Origin: Thauera carbonicopians
GTDB lineage: Bacteria > Pseudomonadota > Gammaproteobacteria > Burkholderiales > Rhodocyclaceae
DNA: 64,000 nucleotides
Direction: 5' to 3'
Assembly (NCBI RefSeq): GCF_025699485.1
Contig: NZ_JANUXN010000016.1
Coordinates: 1-64,000 of the forward strand
How positions within the stretch are numbered: position 1 is the stretch's first letter; each line of letters opens with the position of its first letter. Below, piece after piece: positions 335-54,656 of this stretch. A program made the position numbers and the translations under genes. The notes beneath the pieces were generated by a model. It was not told the DNA's origin, did not search any database, and saw nothing but the letters and a program-made list of their open reading frames with translations.

Positions 335-342
335 GCGCGCGA

Positions 343-590
343 CACGCGGGAGAGAACTCCCGACACGGAGTCGCCGAAGGCGCAACCCCCCGGAACCGCT
401 CAGGCAAAAGGACCGCGTGCGAAGTGCAAGTCTGGAGAGCGGTGCGGACGCCCGACGGCGTGACGCACCCACCGAAGGGGCACCGCCCGGGTCTTTGCCG
501 CGCTCAGCGTTCAGGAACATCTATCTATATATAGATACGCTTGACGCAGCGGCTCAGGGCGAAATCTCTCAGGTACAAGGGACAGATGGG
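343..590 (+). promoter_or_regulatory. Tandem glycine riboswitch (gcvT motif, two aptamers)
   Basis: Aptamer 1 is closed by CACGCGG (343-349) pairing with CCGCGTG (413-419). It contains the typical glycine-aptamer stretches GGAGAG, CGCCGAAGG and CTCAGGCAAAAGGAC. A short linker leads to aptamer 2 (about 431-586), which starts TCTGGAGAG and ends CTCTCAGGTACAAGGGACAGA. The second aptamer has a long AU-rich extra hairpin around 500-550, including ATCTAT/ATAGAT at 519-536. In this family two tandem aptamers bind glycine and usually switch on glycine cleavage genes. The gcvT-gcvH-gcvP operon starts 62 bases downstream, which fits. Confidence 0.93.
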
Positions 591-45292: not shown

Positions 45293-46299
45293 GCACCCCG
45301 CCGCTGCTCGCCCTCCACGGCATCCACAAGCACTTCGGCCCCCGGCCGGACTGGCTGGAAGGCCTCGGCATCCGCCTCGGCTGGCTGCCGCCGCCCGCCC
45401 GCGTGCACGCGCTCGACGGCATCGACGTCGACATTGCCGCCGGCGAAGTGCTCGGCTTGGTCGGCGAATCCGGCAGCAGCAAATCCACCCTCGGCCGCGT
45501 CGCCGCCGGCCTGCTGTCGCCCGACCGGGGCACGCGCCTGTGGCACGGCAAGGAAATCGAAGCCACGCCGATGGCGGCCAACGGCATCCAGATGGTCTTC
45601 CAGGATCCGTCCGCTTCGCTGAACCCACGCATGCGGGTGGCCGAGCTGATCGCCGAAGCGCCGCGCACCCACGGCCTGATCACCCGCCGCGAACAGGCGG
45701 ACTACGTCGCCGAGCTGCTGCGCCAGGTCGGCCTCGACCCCGGCGCGGCGAGCCGCTTCCCGCACCAGTTCTCCGGCGGCCAGCGCGCCCGCATCGGCAT
45801 CGCCCGCGCGCTGGCGGTGAAACCCGAACTGCTGATCTGCGACGAGCCAGTCGCGGCGCTCGACGTCTCGGTGCAGGCCCAGGTGCTGAACCTGTTCGGC
45901 GAACTGCGCAGCCGCCTCGGCCTGACCTACCTGTTCATCAGCCACGACCTCGGCGTCGTGCGCCACCTGTGCGAGCGCGTCGCCATCCTCTACCTGGGCC
46001 GCATCGTCGAAAGCGCCCCGGCGGACGCACTGTTCACCGCGCCCGCCCACCCCTACACCCAGGCCCTGATCGCCGACGCGCCGACGCTGAAGGCCAAGAA
46101 GAAACGCTTCGTCGCCATCCGCGGCGAACTGCCCTCGCCGCTGTCGCCGCCATCCGGCTGCCACTTCCACCCGCGCTGCCCGCACGCCTTCGCCCGCTGC
46201 CGCGAGGAACGGCCGGTGTTGCGCGAGATTTCACCCGGCCATCGAGCTGCCTGTCATTTGCACGACGGTCCCTCTGCCCCGTCCCTGCTGCCACCCTGA
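45289..46299 (+). CDS. Peptide-type ABC transporter ATPase (DppF/OppF family) with altered Walker A
   Basis: 336 residues. The signature FSGGQRARIGIARAL, Q-loop MVFQDPSASLNPR and Walker B LLICDEPVAALDV are complete. The Walker A reads GESGSSKSTLG: Ser replaces the Gly that normally precedes the catalytic Lys (GxxGxGK[ST]). Its partner encoded just upstream is canonical. The C-terminus has FHPRCPHAFARC. The start at 45289 overlaps the previous stop. A paired ATPase with one weakened site can still function, since several ABC proteins have one degenerate site. Confidence 0.93.
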
Positions 46300-46336
46300 C
46301 CCCAGGCCCCAGCCAGTATCGCAAGCAAGCAAATGA

Positions 46337-46367
46337 AAACGGCACCCACAAACAGGTGCCGTTTCTT
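46337..46367. terminator. Bidirectional terminator between the ABC operon and the Rpn-like gene
   Basis: AAACGGCACC (46337-46346) pairs perfectly with GGTGCCGTTT (46355-46364) around an 8-base loop. TCTTCC follows on the plus side and TTTTC on the minus side. The flanking genes converge on it. Confidence 0.85.
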
Positions 46368-46387
46368 CCAGTTCAACCCCTCGGGCT

Positions 46388-47287
46388 TCACTTCTCACTG
46401 AATACATCCTCCAAGGTTCGCGCATCCAGGATGTTCTCAGCCCATTGTTCCAGCTCTACCGATTTTGCCTTGCGCAAGCGCTCATCCGTCACCGGATCGA
46501 GCGGACCGAAACGGCGTGTAAGCTGCCGAATCAACACGGCGAGTTCACCTTGGTGCATCCCCTGTTGCACGCCCTCGCTGCGCACGCGTTCGCTCCAAGT
46601 CATCATGGTCTGCTTCTCCTGCGGGTACTGTTCGGCAAAAAGCTCACGCTCATTATCGGTAAGCCGGCTGTAGATGTCGATGAAGTCCATGTATTTGAGG
46701 CGCTTTTCCATGTCCGGTTCCAGTTCCAGCAGACCTTGGAAAGCCCAGGCGAAGACATCGACCGCAGCCTGTCTCACATAAGCCATGTTGGGCAGATTGA
46801 GCCGGGCGACGATGTTGTCACTGTCGCGGAACTGCTCGGCTGGCATCTCGTCAAGAATGCAGAACAGGTAGCGGAACGACAGGAAAGCATGATTCTCACT
46901 CCCCAGTTCCAGCCGCTTGCGGATACGCGCGTCTCCGCGCAAGAAAACCACCACGGGCACCACGCGATCGGTCTTGCACAGTTCGGCCAGATCGAGGCAG
47001 TAATGGCCGAGCCGGTGGATGGAGAAGCGTGCCGGATCACTTTTCTCTTCCAGCACGAACAGCAACGCCTCCCTGCGACCGTCGGGCCACTCCACCAGCA
47101 AGGGCACGTCCAGTTCGTGAAAGCGGTCGCCGAGGCGGTTCTTCAGTTGCTCCTGCCGGATCGGCGTAATCCGCACCGATTCGTCGATATGCATCGCTTC
47201 GTCCGGAGCAAAGAACTCCAGCGCCTGACGCGGATAGTCGAGGATCAGATTCTTGAAGTTCTGGTCGTGACTGTTGGGAGCAGACAT
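46388..47287 (-). CDS. Rpn family / PD-(D/E)XK nuclease-like protein with DUF4351 tail
   Basis: 299 residues. The N-terminal half resembles the Rpn/PDDEXK transposase-like family (HDQNFKNLILDYPRQALEFF, then DVPLLVEWPDGRREALLFVL followed by EEKS). The Asp and the E-x-K could form the nuclease site. The C-terminal part (GVQQGMHQGELAVLIRQLTRRFG) is of DUF4351 type. Such proteins are recombination-promoting nucleases or defence-related in some hosts, and are usually single genes. The ATG at 47287 follows GGAGTGCCGCC. Its composition is less GC-rich than the neighbours. No inverted ends or target duplications are visible, so I do not call it an insertion sequence. Confidence 0.8.
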   Translation of the reverse strand: MSAPNSHDQNFKNLILDYPRQALEFFAPDEAMHIDESVRITPIRQEQLKNRLGDRFHELDVPLLVEWPDGRREALLFVLEEKSDPARFSIHRLGHYCLDLAELCKTDRVVPVVVFLRGDARIRKRLELGSENHAFLSFRYLFCILDEMPAEQFRDSDNIVARLNLPNMAYVRQAAVDVFAWAFQGLLELEPDMEKRLKYMDFIDIYSRLTDNERELFAEQYPQEKQTMMTWSERVRSEGVQQGMHQGELAVLIRQLTRRFGPLDPVTDERLRKAKSVELEQWAENILDARTLEDVFSEK

Positions 47288-47477
47288 GGCGGCACTCCGG
47301 CTGGTGATGCCAGGATCATCATCACGCACTCGCTCAATGTCAATATCATTATTGGACGTATCCCCCACAGTGCCTTCGTCTCACCTTCGGCTACAATCGG
47401 CCGTTTCCGGCAGGTCGTTGACTGCCGCCCGCCCGATGGAAACATCCGGCCCCCGCAAACAAAACTGGAGATCACCC

Positions 47478-48613: not shown

Positions 48614-48652
48614 CAGTCTTCGCTGGCCGGCATTAGCCGCCGGCGAAGACTG
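48614..48652 (+). terminator. Hairpin after the aminotransferase gene
   Basis: CAGTCTTCGC (48614-48623) and GCGAAGACTG (48643-48652) are perfect arms, with GCCGGC and GCCGCCGGC pairing inside. It lies nine bases after the stop and forms a long stem without a T-run. It marks the left edge of the atypical region. Confidence 0.55.
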
Positions 48653-49045
48653 CGTGACGAGGCGTTCTCGGCCTTTGCGGTCGTTAATGCCAACGAGCTC
48701 GAATGGTTACTTTCGGCCAACTGCGGAACTTCGTCTTTCCCCCTGAGTAGTCATCCAGAAGACCGGTTCACTCTGAAACCTGCCGAACGGCCTATGGATG
48801 ATCGAAAGCCACACCCAGTCGGTCAACGGCCATAGCCTTGGAATTTCGCCAGAGCAGCCCACTGGCAATCCAGCCTATTACCGCACGACAGACTCGCACA
48901 TCCCCTAGCCCATACGCGGGATCACCTCCTCGTATCGGACGTTCGAGGCTCGTGACAGTGTCCGAAGCTGCCCTTGGCTCTGATATTCGGTGATGGAAGT
49001 CACGACAATGCCTTCGCCGGTGGGGCATGATCGCTATCACGATTC
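48653..49045. other. Non-coding debris at the left edge of the defence island
   Basis: About 390 bases without a supportable gene. Short frames exist on both strands but show no domain. Base composition drops compared with the genes to the left. I see no att-like direct repeat shared with the right edge and no transposase remnant that I can name. The hamA promoter must lie in the last part, but no clear hexamer pair was found. Confidence 0.5.
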
Positions 49046-49852
49046 ATGCTCACTGATTGGGGGCGCGCTGTGGGGCTATATGAAAGGTGGTGCGAGGCAA
49101 ACAAGGAAGAGGAAAAACGCAAGCATTACTGGACCTACGTAGAGAAGGATGGCGGCCGCGACGAGATTCGCGCTGACTTGGCTGAGACTATCCGCTCGCA
49201 TTACGACCGACTCGAACGCATCGCCGAGGACGTCGATCGGCTCGGATATAAGGTAGCTGCCAAGATTCTCATCGAGGCTATGCCCCAGACGCCCAAGGGC
49301 CGCTCAGGCGATCTCGGTGAGATCCTCGCGACCGAGTTGGTCGAGGAAGAGATCGGCTTGCGCGTCCCCGTGCGCCGCCTCCGCTACAAAGACGGCCGCA
49401 ACATGGCCATGCGCGGGGATGACTTCATCGGCGCTGGCTACGATGGGGCCGGTGAAAAGCTCTGGCTGCTAAAAGGCGAAGCCAAGAGCAACAAGGTACT
49501 CGGCAAAGCCACGGTTACGAACGCCCGCAAGGTGCTCAACCGCGACAACGGCCGTTGCACGCCCGATTCGCTGCTGTTTGTCGCCAACCGCCTGCTGGAG
49601 AGCAACGATCCAGATGACAACGCGCTGGGTCGCAGTCTCCGTGACGAGGTGGGCCTGAAGTCCCTTCGCGCCGATCGCATCGACCACATGCTTTTCACCG
49701 TGTCGGGCAACGGCCCGCACGCTTCGCTGAAAGAGGACCTCGACGCCACGGGCACCAGTCGAGATCATTACGTCGTGAACATCCACGTCGAAGATCACCA
49801 GGACTTCATCGCGGCCATGTACGAGGAGGCGGAAAACCTTGGAGACGATTGA
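49046..49852 (+). CDS. hamA: Hachiman antiphage defence protein HamA (DUF1837 nuclease)
   Basis: 268 residues. HamA is the effector subunit of the Hachiman defence system and carries a PD-(D/E)XK-type nuclease fold. The catalytic pattern is visible: Glu92 (SGDLGEILATELV), Asp125/Asp126 (MRGDDFIG), then Glu145 and Lys147 in LLKGEAKSNK. The first ATG, at 49046, is preceded by a stop 15 bases upstream and has no good ribosome site, so the true start is uncertain (a GTG at 49070 is possible). The 3' end overlaps hamB by 14 bases, the usual coupled arrangement. Confidence 0.88.
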   Translation: MLTDWGRAVGLYERWCEANKEEEKRKHYWTYVEKDGGRDEIRADLAETIRSHYDRLERIAEDVDRLGYKVAAKILIEAMPQTPKGRSGDLGEILATELVEEEIGLRVPVRRLRYKDGRNMAMRGDDFIGAGYDGAGEKLWLLKGEAKSNKVLGKATVTNARKVLNRDNGRCTPDSLLFVANRLLESNDPDDNALGRSLRDEVGLKSLRADRIDHMLFTVSGNGPHASLKEDLDATGTSRDHYVVNIHVEDHQDFIAAMYEEAENLGDD

Positions 49853-52800
49853 CGAACTGACCACGTTCCTGACGACCGCGACCGGCGACGGTATCCTTGG
49901 GCACCTCCTCTATCGCGGTGCGGCTTGGTCGCTGATGCGCGAGGACGGCGTGTTGCCCCCTGATGCGCCGCCGCTGGGCGCGACGATCGAAACCGATCTT
50001 GCCGAACACGGCTTCGCCCTGCTCAGGGGCGCCATGGCCCTGCGTGCTCAGGCTGGCGCCTCAAATTTGACCATCAAGGCGTTCGAGCGCGCTGCCAACG
50101 CCTTCGAAGCCCTTGTTCGCAACGGCGATTCGGAGTCGCCAGATCGTGGCTTCCGTCGCACCATAGCCGCCGCAGCCTATCACCTCGCCGGCTTCTCAGC
50201 CGTCGCCTATTCGCTATTCAACGAGACTGCGAACGATCTCAATGCCTCGCCAGGCGAGACGGCGATCCAACACCTGATCCTGCGCGATCTTGGCCAGTTG
50301 CGTGATTTCGTTCGCGAGTGGCTGGATGACGAAGCTCACGACGATGAGCAGATCGCCGAGTCGCTGCGGGGTGAAGAGGCTGACGTGGATGACGCGCTGT
50401 CTACCATCCTCAACACGACGATCTGCCGGGCGCTGGCGCATTTTGATTTCGCGCTCGAGACAGGCGAATCCGAGCCAATCGAGACCGCGCGGGCGCTGCT
50501 CGCCACCGCAGTGAGTCTGGCGGACAATGCGGAGAATGTTCCGCTGTGGTGGATCTCGAACATTTGCCGTCACCTTATCGATGATCTCTGGCAGCATTCC
50601 CTCCATCAGAATTTGCCGACCGAGCCGCCAGGGGGAACGGAGGAAAAATACCCGGACCTGCGCCGGCTGTTCATCTCGTCGCTCTACGCTCGCAAGACTT
50701 CCGAGGTAGAGCTATGGCCATCACAGCGCGAAGCGGCCCTGCGTTCCACCGACGTCACGGACGACCTAGTCGTCGCCTTGCCCACCAGCGCCGGCAAGAC
50801 GCGGGTGGCGGAGATCGCCGCGCTTATGACCCTATCGTCGGCGCGCCGGGTGCTGATCGTCACGCCGCTGCGCGCTCTGTCGGCGCAGACCGAGCGATCT
50901 TTCAGAAAGACTTTCGCGCCCCTCGGCTTCAGCGTCTCCTCCCTTTATGGTGCCAGCGGCCTTTCGGCTGGCGATGAAGACGCGCTGCGCACCCGCGAGA
51001 TCATCATCGCTACGCCAGAGAAACTCGATTTCGCCCTGCGAAGCGACCCGTCGCTGATCGATGATGTTGGCCTTATCGTCCTCGACGAAGGCCACATGAT
51101 CGGCCCAAGCGAGCGTGAGATCCGCTATGAGACGCTGGTGCAACGCCTGCTTCGGCGCGCGGACGCGCGCGAACGCCGGATTGTCTGTCTCTCCGCTATC
51201 CTGCCCAGCGGCGACGAACTCAACGATCTTACCGCATGGATACGCTCCGACGAACCGGGCGAGCCAGTGCTTTCCGACTGGCGCCCCACACGGCAGCGGT
51301 TCGGCGCGCTCACTTGGCGGGGCAAGGACGCGCTGCTTCGGCTAGACCTCGACGACGATGGGCCGTTCCTCGACAAATTCGTCATGCAGAAGCCGGCGCG
51401 GGGGAACGAGAAGAAACCCTATCCGCGCAAGAACTCGCATCTCACCCTGTTCGCCGCATGGGAGTTCGCAAGCCAGGGCAAGCGGATCCTTATCTTCTCG
51501 ACCCAGGCGAATTGGGTCGAGGGCTACGGCAAGCAGGTCGTGGACCTCTGCGAGCGCGGCTATCTGGACTCGCTGCTGGAGGATGAGGCGTCGATCACCC
51601 ACGCTCTGGAGGTGGGCAAGGAGTGGTTGGGCGAAGACCATCCCGCCGTCGCCTGTCTGAAGGCAGGCGTTGCCATTCACCACGGCCGGCTACCGAGCCC
51701 GTTTTTGCGCGAGCTGGAAGTCCTGCTGTCCGAAGGTGTCCTGAAGGTCATCGTCGCGTCGCCGACGCTGGCGCAGGGACTCAACCTCAACGCCGCCGTC
51801 CTGTTAGTGCCGGTGCTGTATCGGGCGTCCGAGAAGATCAAAGGCGAGGAGTTCGCGAACGTCGCCGGGCGCGCCGGGCGCGCCTTCGTAGACGTCGAAG
51901 GTCTCATCGTCCACGTCATGTTCGATAAGATCGATTGGCGAAAGGAGGAGTGGCGAAAGCTGGTCGCCTCCGCCAAGGCCCGCACGCTGAAGAGTGGCCT
52001 CATCCAGATCGTCGCCGAGATCCTTGAGCGCCTGTCCTGCGAAGGTGTCCTGGATCGCGATGATGCTTGGGAATATCTCGCCAATGCTCGTGAAGCCTGG
52101 AGATCGTCTGAGGAGGAAGCCGCGGTTGCCGAGCACTTGGCGGCCAACGCGGAATACGCCGCTGATGGCGACGATGATGAAGGCGGCGATGACGAGTTGG
52201 AGAGCATTCACGAGGAGCCGCTTTCGCAAATCGTCGAACGCCTCGATGCGACCGTGTTCGGACTGATCGAAGCACTCGATTCCGATCGCGCCGACCTGCC
52301 GAAGCTGTTGGACGAGGCACTCCAGGGATCGCTCTGGGCTCGCCAGATCGCCCGAGAGGGTGGGGGCGTCGCCCCATTGCACAAAAAGGTGTTCGAGGCA
52401 CGCGCCGCTCTCATTTGGAAGACCACCACGGCGCAGGCGCGGCGCGGACATTTCGCCATGGGTGTCGGGCTTGAGGCTGGCCTCAGCATCGACGCCATGG
52501 CCGACGAGCTGGCCAAAGTCCTCGACCGAGCTGACGGGGCGGCGCTGAGCGGCGACATCGACGAACTTGTCGATGCGCTTGGCGGCCTTGGGGAACGCCT
52601 GCTGTTCATGCGGCCTTTCATCCCCGACAAGGCGAACGCGCTGCCGGCAAACTGGAAAAGCATCCTACGCAGCTGGGTGTCCGGCGAGGAGGTTTCCAAG
52701 ATCGGGCCGCAGAACATGCGGGCCGTCGAAGAGGCCTTTACCTATCGTTTGGTCTGGGCACTGGAAGCTGTGCGTACCCGCCGCATGTCCCTCGGCTGGT

Positions 52801-53339
52801 CGCCGGAGACTGTGGCCGGCGGCGCCGCAGCGGCGGTCGAAACTGGCGTCCCGCAGTTCATGATGGCGATGCTGATTCGCGCGGGCCTTCCATCACGGCG
52901 CGCAGCCATGGCGGCGATCGAGGACGCTAAGCCTGCCTTCTTCACGCCCGCCGAGATGCGGGCCTGGCTTGAATCCGACGAGATCACGGCCCACACGGAC
53001 GCCCGCGACTGGCCGACGCCCGACACGGCCGCGCTATGGGCGCGGTTCCGAACCGAAGCCCTCTGCGGAGGTATTCAGAAATGGTCGGTCGAACATTACA
53101 AGCGTCTGCTCGACACCGCGGCTGCCCCACCTGCTGGCCTCTATCGGATCGTCACCGATGAGGGGGACGGACGGACTTGGCTGGCCACGCCCGACTATCA
53201 GCGGATCGCCGCGTTCAAGAAGCCGGCTGTCGATCCCAAGCCCAGCCTCTTCTCGGGTCGGTTACTGGGTAACACGAGGCTGGTGGATGTCTTGCGCGTC
53301 GGCCACGGGAAACTGCGCTGGCCGTCCGTCGATGCGTGA
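49839..53339 (+). CDS. hamB: Hachiman antiphage defence helicase HamB
   Basis: 1166 residues. A long helical N-terminal region (about 1-290) precedes a superfamily 2 helicase. Motif I is LPTSAGKTR with Lys320, motif II is the DEGH box (416-419; LIVLDEGHMIG), motif III is CLSAILPS, and motif VI is FANVAGRAGRAFV. A large C-terminal region (about 690-1166) has an acidic stretch (DGDDDEGGDDELESI). HamB senses nucleic-acid structure or damage and controls the HamA nuclease; this is known for the family. Translation appears to start at a TTG (49839) inside hamA, behind GAGGAGGCGGAAAACC. Confidence 0.9.
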   Translation: METIDELTTFLTTATGDGILGHLLYRGAAWSLMREDGVLPPDAPPLGATIETDLAEHGFALLRGAMALRAQAGASNLTIKAFERAANAFEALVRNGDSESPDRGFRRTIAAAAYHLAGFSAVAYSLFNETANDLNASPGETAIQHLILRDLGQLRDFVREWLDDEAHDDEQIAESLRGEEADVDDALSTILNTTICRALAHFDFALETGESEPIETARALLATAVSLADNAENVPLWWISNICRHLIDDLWQHSLHQNLPTEPPGGTEEKYPDLRRLFISSLYARKTSEVELWPSQREAALRSTDVTDDLVVALPTSAGKTRVAEIAALMTLSSARRVLIVTPLRALSAQTERSFRKTFAPLGFSVSSLYGASGLSAGDEDALRTREIIIATPEKLDFALRSDPSLIDDVGLIVLDEGHMIGPSEREIRYETLVQRLLRRADARERRIVCLSAILPSGDELNDLTAWIRSDEPGEPVLSDWRPTRQRFGALTWRGKDALLRLDLDDDGPFLDKFVMQKPARGNEKKPYPRKNSHLTLFAAWEFASQGKRILIFSTQANWVEGYGKQVVDLCERGYLDSLLEDEASITHALEVGKEWLGEDHPAVACLKAGVAIHHGRLPSPFLRELEVLLSEGVLKVIVASPTLAQGLNLNAAVLLVPVLYRASEKIKGEEFANVAGRAGRAFVDVEGLIVHVMFDKIDWRKEEWRKLVASAKARTLKSGLIQIVAEILERLSCEGVLDRDDAWEYLANAREAWRSSEEEAAVAEHLAANAEYAADGDDDEGGDDELESIHEEPLSQIVERLDATVFGLIEALDSDRADLPKLLDEALQGSLWARQIAREGGGVAPLHKKVFEARAALIWKTTTAQARRGHFAMGVGLEAGLSIDAMADELAKVLDRADGAALSGDIDELVDALGGLGERLLFMRPFIPDKANALPANWKSILRSWVSGEEVSKIGPQNMRAVEEAFTYRLVWALEAVRTRRMSLGWSPETVAGGAAAAVETGVPQFMMAMLIRAGLPSRRAAMAAIEDAKPAFFTPAEMRAWLESDEITAHTDARDWPTPDTAALWARFRTEALCGGIQKWSVEHYKRLLDTAAAPPAGLYRIVTDEGDGRTWLATPDYQRIAAFKKPAVDPKPSLFSGRLLGNTRLVDVLRVGHGKLRWPSVDA

Positions 53340-53535
53340 ATGGGAACCGTCGAGTTGCTCTGCGCCTGCAGCGGCAACCAGAAGCGCCAACCAGTGGCGA
53401 ACTGAGAACCGAGCACGCTTGGAAGACAGTGGAATCTAATCCAAGAGGCAGCAATTTTACGTTAACCCGATACAGTCGGAGATGTCGCACCGCTGACCGC
53501 TTATCCGAACGTCAGCCGCAGGGAGGCGCGGGCTG

Positions 53536-53574
53536 TGTCGTGTTGCTGTCGGGTCGCTGTCGTGTTCTGTCGGG
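53536..53574. repeat. Direct repeat in the promoter region of the XRE gene
   Basis: TGTCGTGTTGCTGTCGGG (53536-53553) and TGTCGTGTTCTGTCGGG (53558-53574) are direct copies differing by one missing base. They are spaced so that their starts are 22 bases apart, about two helical turns. They end 49 bases before the XRE start codon and could be operator half-sites for that regulator. Confidence 0.5.
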
Positions 53575-53623
53575 AGACAGGATCTCAAACTGAGGTCGTC
53601 ACCAACGAGAAAGGAGAACAGTG

Positions 53624-54313
53624 ATGACTACTGAGCAAACCAAGAAACCCCGTTTGCTGAGCCCCGAAGAGCTGGCTGCGTTCGTCAAGATTATGCGCGA
53701 CATCCGCAAATGGTCCCAGGAGCAGTTGTCTGGAATATCTGGCTTGAGCGTTCGGACGATCCAGCGTGTCGAGAGTGGTCGGCACTCCGACCTTGATACC
53801 CGTCGCGCCTTGGCGCGGGCCTTTGAGTTAGAAGACATCGATGCTCTGAACAAGCCTTTCCACTTCCCTACAGAGGCAGAGATTGAGGCAGAAAAGGAGA
53901 TATTTGACCGCGAGCACATTACGCTTGAAGCCCTGCCTCTCACCACTGGCAAGCTGCTCGCTCAACTCGCTGAGACGACGGCCATGGACCTCATTACCTC
54001 GGGCTTCGCGATGGCACGCGAGGCGGATGAGACGTTTGCGCTTCTAACCGACTACTTTCGGGAATACAGGGATTGCGCCGACCTGTACCAAGAAAGGGAT
54101 AAGCTCGACATTCATGACGAAATGCAAAGCCACATCGACAGCCTGAAGGAACTGGGCGTATCGTTGTGCTACGCAACCCGGAAGGTTGCTGTGAGATTCA
54201 GGGATGAGACCGCTAAGCCAATGGAGATGCTCACTCTGTACCTTGTCTCGTTCCCTCTGGGCAAAGAACCTGCGGAATTTGCCACGCCGAGGGACATGCC
54301 CATCAAGTTTTGA
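53624..54313 (+). CDS. XRE-family HTH regulator with uncharacterised C-terminal domain
   Basis: 229 residues. The N-terminal helix-turn-helix (about 12-70; KIMRDIRKWSQEQLSGISGL and SVRTIQRVESGRHS) is well conserved. The C-terminal two thirds (about 85-229) form a helical domain that I do not recognise (EIFDREHITLEALPLTTGKL, FREYRDCADLYQE). I recall similar proteins as orphan genes in many proteobacteria, so it may not belong to the Hachiman system. The ATG at 53624 lies seven bases after AAGGAG; a GTG at 53621 is too close to it. It lies 284 bases after hamB in the same direction. Confidence 0.82.
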   Translation: MTTEQTKKPRLLSPEELAAFVKIMRDIRKWSQEQLSGISGLSVRTIQRVESGRHSDLDTRRALARAFELEDIDALNKPFHFPTEAEIEAEKEIFDREHITLEALPLTTGKLLAQLAETTAMDLITSGFAMAREADETFALLTDYFREYRDCADLYQERDKLDIHDEMQSHIDSLKELGVSLCYATRKVAVRFRDETAKPMEMLTLYLVSFPLGKEPAEFATPRDMPIKF

Positions 54314-54656
54314 GTCTCCGCGGTTCCCGGTCCCGTCGCCACCAGGTCTGCCAATATGGCGCTCTCTTCAGAGGACATATTCATTAACTGAATTGACCCG
54401 CCCGTAGTCGGCAGCCTACGGACGGGTTGATGACCAATCGGCCGGCAGGACGTATGACGCCAATGGCCGACCAGTTCGTGCTCAGTCTCCGAATTGTATG
54501 GCGGCTCCACTCGGCAACCTGCCTTTGGAGACGGGAGACGGCGAATGTCTCTTGTGGGTCGGTAGCCGTAGCTCGGGGGCCAAGCATCGGACAACAGCTT
54601 TGGCCGAACAACAGCCCCACCACCGAACGCCAGGTTCAAACCCGCGCAGCCCGCCC
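54314..54656. other. Non-coding debris at the right edge of the defence island
   Basis: About 340 bases with no supportable gene. It contains one hairpin: ACCCG-C-CCGTAG (54396-54407) against CTACGG-A-CGGGT (54416-54427), a 12-base stem with one mismatch. The hairpin could end the XRE transcript. The rest looks like decayed coding sequence of mixed origin. The cusA stop codon begins right after it on the other strand. Confidence 0.5.

What the first reader, a model, noticed from the sequence alone, without database searches (positions are those of the whole stretch)
49046..53339. Complete Hachiman (hamA-hamB) antiphage system
HamA has a DUF1837 PD-(D/E)XK pattern (Glu92, Asp125/126, Glu145-x-Lys147). 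HamB has the SF2 motifs SAGKT, DEGH, SAI and GRAGR within a 1166-residue chain. The genes overlap by 14 bases, and HamB seems to start at TTG inside hamA, which would keep helicase and nuclease in balance. HamB is long, with extended N- and C-terminal regions of unknown role.
Basis: partly seen in the sequence, partly recalled or inferred. Interest (0 to 1): 0.7.

Follow-up and report, generated by a model that had tools for sequence, protein, structure and literature searches.

The report
Ordinary Hachiman system, eroded third gene
This is a complete, ordinary two-gene Hachiman anti-phage system, and a scrap of DNA just behind it suggests that its ancestors carried a third gene that some close relatives still keep.

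Summary
The finding is correct: a complete Hachiman pair. HamA scores 371.5 bits and HamB 1657.7 bits against PADLOC models, each over nearly the whole model. Both match the solved E. coli ECOR31 complex 8VX9, and the quoted motifs are present. Corrections: hamA most likely starts at GTG 49070, not ATG 49046. The TTG start and 14-base overlap of hamB are conserved, 76 of 77 and 75 of 77, and the TTG looks selected. The ends of HamB are not of unknown role (published structure). The host is taken to be a Thauera, from contig lengths. The pair sits at a site that holds toxin-antitoxin pairs in the two nearest relatives. New here: of 72 comparable loci, 16 carry an intact CoiA-like gene right behind hamB and 19, this window included, carry an eroded one at the same junction. 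Intactness changes 12 times on the tree, 9 of them forced by well-supported branches. So this clade's cassette was probably three genes, the third often lost. No paper in the library holds both Hachiman and CoiA. The system itself is ordinary; the third gene is worth testing.

The parts
49046..49069 (+).
49839..53339 (+). hamB, 1166 aa, TTG start: Ski2-like SF2 helicase (SAGKT 317, DEGH 416, SAI 452, GRAGR 677)
49823..49852 (+). hamA-hamB junction: GAGGAGG at 49823-49829, TTG start at 49839, 14-base overlap
   Evidence: 75 of 77 overlaps of 14; CTT at HamA Leu265 in 75 of the 76 relatives with a codon there, 2 of 78 unaligned; CTT is 12.5% of other Leu codons
53343..53412 (+). eroded 5' piece of a CoiA-like third gene: 51 of 70 bases match the intact gene of L033; in-frame stop after 16 codons
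48949..49069 (+). leader stretch shared with the Thauera terpenica copy (L033 = L004), which lies at another site
48623..54629 (.). 6.0-kb segment without counterpart in the nearest relative G018; the same gap holds a ParD/ParE pair in G018 and a Phd/YefM plus PIN pair in G022
53621..54313 (+). helix-turn-helix protein (HTH_3) in the same segment; not among the flank clusters listed for the other loci, so probably not part of the system

Best explanation
This is a complete, intact canonical two-gene Hachiman system. By analogy with ECOR31, HamA (nuclease) and HamB (3'-5' Ski2-like helicase) form a 1:1 complex in which HamB holds HamA in check on intact DNA. When a free 3' single-stranded end, as made during phage replication or host DNA breakdown, enters HamB, ATP hydrolysis moves the helicase and its N-terminal bundle and activates HamA, which cuts phage and host DNA and stops the phage at the cost of the cell. 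hamB is translated from a TTG inside the end of hamA, probably by coupled translation. Shown here: both genes, their motifs, their match to the solved complex, the conserved junction. Inferred from published work on a homologue: complex, trigger, DNA destruction. Also inferred: the cassette came to this Thauera by horizontal transfer and has lost all but the first bases of a third, CoiA-like gene.
For: PADLOC HamA 6.1e-112 and HamB E = 0 over nearly full profiles; Pfam HamA above cut-off. HamA matches 8VX9 chain A at 1.5e-33 (residues 12-261), HamB chain B at 7.7e-249 (residues 3-1097). Catalytic residues unchanged in relatives; in the printed alignments they fall on ECOR31 HamA Glu138 and Lys140 and HamB Asp431, whose mutation abolished defence (PMC12278908). 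Junction conserved. One HamA in the genome. Horizontal spread: HamA 92-93% identical in records labelled Alpha-, Beta- and Gammaproteobacteria and on a conjugative plasmid (H1, 92.8%).
Against: No functional data for this copy. Its sequence is well diverged from the tested ECOR31 proteins, so trigger and phage range may differ. The promoter scan was at chance level (2 found, mean 1.1, sd 1.0; none on the + strand before hamA), so expression is not shown.
Confidence: 0.92

Rival explanations
1. The pair is a truncated three-gene Hachiman: the lost CoiA-like gene was needed for full function, so the copy here is weakened or inactive.
For: Of 72 loci, 16 have an intact third gene and 19 an eroded one at the same junction; intact copies look to be under purifying selection, median dN/dS 0.068 over 114 of 120 pairs.
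Against: 37 of 72 Hachiman loci show no trace of it, and catalytic residues of HamA are unchanged in all 81 loci; ECOR31 defends with hamA and hamB cloned (PMC12278908).
Confidence: 0.12
2. An AbpAB- or HamMAB-like variant in which HamA is catalytically dead and another effector does the cutting.
For: Such variants of the same family exist (PMC12278908 Discussion; PMC12799240 passages).
Against: HamA is 260 aa with PF08878 as the only Pfam match and keeps the D-GExK residues; the next gene upstream is a class-V aminotransferase.
Confidence: 0.02
3. A helicase-nuclease pair kept for DNA repair rather than phage defence.
For: HamB is related to Hel308 repair helicases.
Against: Best match by far is HamB (831.8 against 110 bits); patchy distribution, 4 of 41 genomes searched, own included; relatives lie on plasmids and near AbiE genes.
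Confidence: 0.03

Closest known systems
Hachiman of E. coli ECOR31 (HamAB, PDB 8VX9; PMC12278908)
   Same: Both proteins align over most of their length; active-site residues and helicase motifs match
   Different: Sequences well diverged; the 14-base overlap and TTG start were not compared with ECOR31; here a piece of a third gene follows hamB
HamMAB, protease-HamA fusion Hachiman (PMC12799240, passages)
   Same: Same HamA/HamB core family
   Different: Here HamA has no fused domain and keeps D-GExK, which is absent in virtually all the fusions
AbpAB (as discussed in PMC12278908)
   Same: Nuclease plus Ski2-like helicase; HamA-like domain
   Different: AbpA carries a Cap4-like nuclease and an inactive HamA part; neither holds here
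CoiA-domain proteins (PF06054); a CoiA-domain protein is among the E. coli defence systems of PMC9519451 (passages)
   Same: The third gene of relatives matches CoiA_nuc weakly (12 of 13 members, best E 0.0014; below the curated cut-off in the two whose scores are shown); a 58.7% identical plasmid protein is annotated as CoiA family
   Different: It sits directly behind hamB; only an eroded piece of it remains in this window

Membership tests
Hachiman | HamA: DUF1837 / PF08878 domain | tested here: met
   PADLOC 371.5 bits; Pfam 86.9 bits, cut-off 25
Hachiman | HamA D-GExK active site | tested here: met
   Asp125/126, Glu145, Lys147 present and unchanged in 81 of 81 relative loci
Hachiman | HamB: Ski2-like SF2 helicase with intact motifs | tested here: met
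   PADLOC 1657.7 bits; motifs at 317, 416, 452, 677; Pfam DEAD over cut-off, Helicase_C below it
Hachiman | HamB N-terminal HamA-binding region present | tested here: met
   Sequence alignment to 8VX9 chain B from residue 3; no structure predicted here
Hachiman | hamA and hamB adjacent on one strand | tested here: met
   14-base overlap
Hachiman | HamA-HamB complex; DNA cleavage triggered by 3' ends | not testable with these tools
   Inferred from ECOR31
Hachiman | Protection against phage | not testable with these tools
   Needs plaque assays
HamMAB (protease-fused Hachiman) | Protease fused to HamA, catalytic motif lost | tested here: not met
   260-aa HamA, PF08878 the only Pfam match, motif intact
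AbpAB | Extra nuclease domain and inactive HamA part | tested here: not met

The most novel reading that the evidence does not exclude
One clade of Hachiman, spread across Alpha-, Beta- and Gammaproteobacteria, was ancestrally a three-gene system, hamA-hamB-coiA-like, in which the third product, a putative nuclease of the CoiA family, is a working partner or modifier of HamAB. It is lost again and again, as in this window, perhaps because it is costly or needed only against some phages.
Probability: 0.45. Interest if true: 0.55.

Novelty: new member of a known kind. Interest (0 to 1): 0.3.

Why it matters
The pair itself adds one more well-preserved Hachiman to a family whose mechanism is already published. 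What it opens is the neighbour: a conserved CoiA-like gene that starts 2-15 bases behind hamB in 16 relatives and decays in place in others. No paper of the library searched holds both words, Hachiman and CoiA (open-licence PMC papers only). If the gene belongs to the system, Hachiman in this clade has a third component, for which the PADLOC copy used here has no model (one member scanned, no match), and the many natural losses give a ready-made comparison of systems with and without it. The corrected hamA start also matters for anyone cloning such loci.

Tried and rejected
Phage or prophage origin: no HamA or CoiA-like match among 50,697 phage records; one IMG/VR contig holds a 90% HamA and another a 52% CoiA-like protein; neither neighbourhood was read. 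Neither protein matches PHROGs. Insertion by flanking repeats: two short direct-repeat families, both inside hamA-hamB, and no inverted repeats at the settings used; how the segment came in is unknown. The helix-turn-helix gene as third component: no window gene is in the flank clusters listed (clusters of five or more loci, listing capped at 46). HamA with a SAVED domain, suggested by an annotation in Candidatus Manganitrophus: that coding sequence is 759 bases and the HamA match covers 738 of them, so the name looks like a mis-annotation (no domain search done). Fold of the CoiA-like protein: poor model (mean pLDDT 45.1), so no fold search was run; the profile search of solved structures gave nothing credible (best E 0.026, a retroviral capsid protein). 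Against a tight link of the CoiA-like gene with Hachiman: none of eight plasmid regions with CoiA-like genes other than H1 shows an annotated Hachiman within 6 kb, one of them an 81.8% identical partial match (gene tables incomplete); of 398 Pseudomonadota genomes 3 had a CoiA-like match and 6, the own included, a HamA match, none both, and one CoiA-like gene of 78% identity, with an internal stop, stands in a genome without a HamA match. That the overlap balances the proteins could not be tested.

Papers: PMC12278908, outline, Results parts 1 and 2 of 3, Discussion, found passages; PMC12799240 and PMC9519451, found passages only; the others, search listings only. PMC11914072 is not held.
Full report
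What is there. The window holds two overlapping genes on the + strand. The first encodes a HamA: PADLOC 371.5 bits, E 6.1e-112, over profile positions 3-256 of 257; Pfam HamA 86.9 bits against a cut-off of 25. The second encodes a HamB: PADLOC 1657.7 bits over 2-1162 of 1163; Pfam DEAD is over its cut-off, Helicase_C below. NCBIfam has no match for HamA and none over cut-off among the 25 listed for HamB. Against solved structures the best match of each is the HamAB complex of E. coli ECOR31, entry 8VX9: HamA 1.5e-33 over residues 12-261, HamB 7.7e-249 over residues 3-1097. The genome has one HamA match.

Starts and junction. DNA homology begins at 49070 or 49071 in 50 of 81 loci, upstream of that in 25, later in 6, and three annotated plasmid homologues start at this codon. 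So hamA most likely starts at GTG 49070. The start codon of hamB is TTG in 76 and GTG in 1 of 77 placed loci, and the overlap is 14 bases in 75 of 77. The TTG lies across the HamA codon for Leu265 and the next codon; in 78 relatives this codon is CTT in 75, CGT in 1 and not aligned in 2, while CTT makes up 12.5% of the other Leu codons. Relatedness inflates such counts, but the contrast is strong. That the overlap balances the two proteins is inference.

The ends of HamB. In the published structure the N-terminal helical bundle binds HamA, and WH*, C-terminal helical and OB-like domains are described besides the helicase core (PMC12278908, Results). The window protein aligns through residue 1097 of 1166, so these parts are not of unknown role.

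Where it sits. Two same-genus genomes hold HamA on contigs of 461,770 and 129,173 bases, the lengths of the contigs of Thauera sp. UWPOB_THAU1 and Thauera terpenica 58Eu; the host is therefore taken to be a Thauera. HamA occurs in 4 of 41 genomes, own included. Upstream lies a class-V aminotransferase gene (ending 48605) and downstream an AcrB-type efflux gene (from 54657). Four relatives have 1.25 kb (G018), 1.2 kb (G022), 2.46 kb (G002) and 2.44 kb (G017) between the ends of homology, against 6.0 kb here. G018 has a ParD/ParE pair there and G022 a Phd/YefM plus PIN pair; G002 has a PepSY protein and a ferric-reductase-like protein; the content of G017 was not read. Of 23 relatives whose aminotransferase region was fetched, 5 show the efflux gene in the stretch, in G023 about 10 kb away; several stretches are cut by contig ends. 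The two Thauera copies with 92% and 89% identical HamA lie on other contigs than that site, and beyond the cassette their flanks do not match the window from 38000 on. Relatives of HamA were found in 78 distinct loci (capped at 80), mostly Alpha-, Beta- and Gammaproteobacteria with single records labelled otherwise, and in 60 plasmid records, of which 5 are 60% identical or more; 43 of the 60 are typed conjugative. In the 78 loci, by clustering, AbiEii is found in 21, AbiEi in 22 and an integrase in 23 (flanks up to 8 kb, many cut short; one member of each cluster scanned in Pfam). The window region 41001-61500 has no member of these clusters.

The third gene. Behind hamB, 18 of the 78 loci carry a related gene of about 234 residues. 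In 16 it is intact; these start with ATG, 15 bases behind the hamB stop in 10, 14 in 3 and 2 in 3, and the median dN/dS is 0.068 over 114 of 120 pairs, 6 being outside the distance limits of the script. The family is CoiA-like: CoiA_nuc is hit by 12 of 13 members scanned, best E 0.0014, below the curated cut-off in the two whose scores are shown; a 58.7% identical plasmid protein is annotated as CoiA family. PADLOC, NCBIfam and PHROGs give no match. All 13 aligned members share an ELQHS stretch and 12 of 13 an Asp before it; that this is a PD-(D/E)XK-like site is recalled, not shown. The structure model was too poor to use.

For 72 loci (71 relatives and the window) the 100 bases behind hamB could be compared with the intact copies. 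16 are intact; 19 score above all 1,440 shuffles (maximum 40, lowest of the 19 is 48) and are called eroded (two of these, L028 and L055, are nearly full length but interrupted or not passing the intact test; the window is one of the 19); 37 do not exceed the shuffles. The window matches the T. terpenica copy at 51 of 70 bases, score 64, against a maximum of 40 in 5,000 shuffles of its own bases. The frame there ends after 16 codons and the DNA match stops at 53412; a protein search finds nothing in window 41001-61500 or in the genome. On a HamA+HamB tree of the 72 rows, intact against not intact needs 12 changes, of which starred branches force 9, and trace against no trace 15, of which 8. 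A group of nine rows on one side of the midpoint root all lack it. The tree is a quick one, midpoint-rooted, and counts of changes do not tell gain from loss; eroded pieces at the same junction point to loss. My conclusion is that the main clade had a three-gene cassette and lost the third gene many times.

Against a working link: none of eight plasmid regions with CoiA-like genes other than H1 shows an annotated Hachiman within 6 kb, a sample of 398 phylum genomes has none with both, a 78% identical copy stands in a genome without a HamA match, and 37 of 72 Hachiman loci show no trace. So the third gene may be a passenger. I put the chance that it acts with HamAB at 0.45. No paper in the searched library holds both Hachiman and CoiA or Hachiman and Thauera; this covers open-licence PMC papers only.

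Mechanism. With intact active sites and a full-length HamB, the best reading is the published one: HamB restrains HamA on intact DNA; a free 3' end drives ATP hydrolysis and movement of the helicase and its N-terminal bundle, and HamA then destroys phage and host DNA (PMC12278908). For this copy every functional step is inferred.

Verdict. Correct finding with a corrected start; new member of a known kind. The interest lies in the eroded third gene.

Noticed in passing
window 53343-53412; intact in L033:12310-13011 and 15 other loci: Eroded 5' piece of a CoiA-like gene behind hamB; of 72 comparable loci 16 have it intact and 19 eroded.
   Followed up: yes
window 46277-47385: A 1.1-kb stretch with a DUF4351 protein gene (46388-47368, minus strand) is absent from the nearest relative G018, where the two ends of homology lie 14 bases apart.
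   Followed up: no
window 48623-54629; L086:7178-8432; L087:6901-8127: Variable site between an aminotransferase and an AcrB-type efflux gene: Hachiman plus a helix-turn-helix gene here, ParD/ParE in G018, Phd/YefM plus PIN in G022.
   Followed up: partly
L111:4989-5747 (CP114559.1): A HamA homologue in a Candidatus Manganitrophus plasmid is annotated as a SAVED domain protein, next to a DEAD/DEAH helicase; probably a mis-annotation.
   Followed up: partly
L083:12322-13734 and 7 other loci: A gene clustering with an AbiJ_NTD3 protein (only L083 scanned) lies behind hamB in 8 loci.
   Followed up: no
L009:950-2380 and 17 other loci: A gene clustering with an AAA/DUF4143 ATPase (only L009 scanned; PADLOC candidate PDC-S01, 568.8 bits) lies upstream of or reaching into hamA's start in 18 loci.
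   Followed up: no
window 337-425: Glycine riboswitch, 69.1 bits.
   Followed up: no
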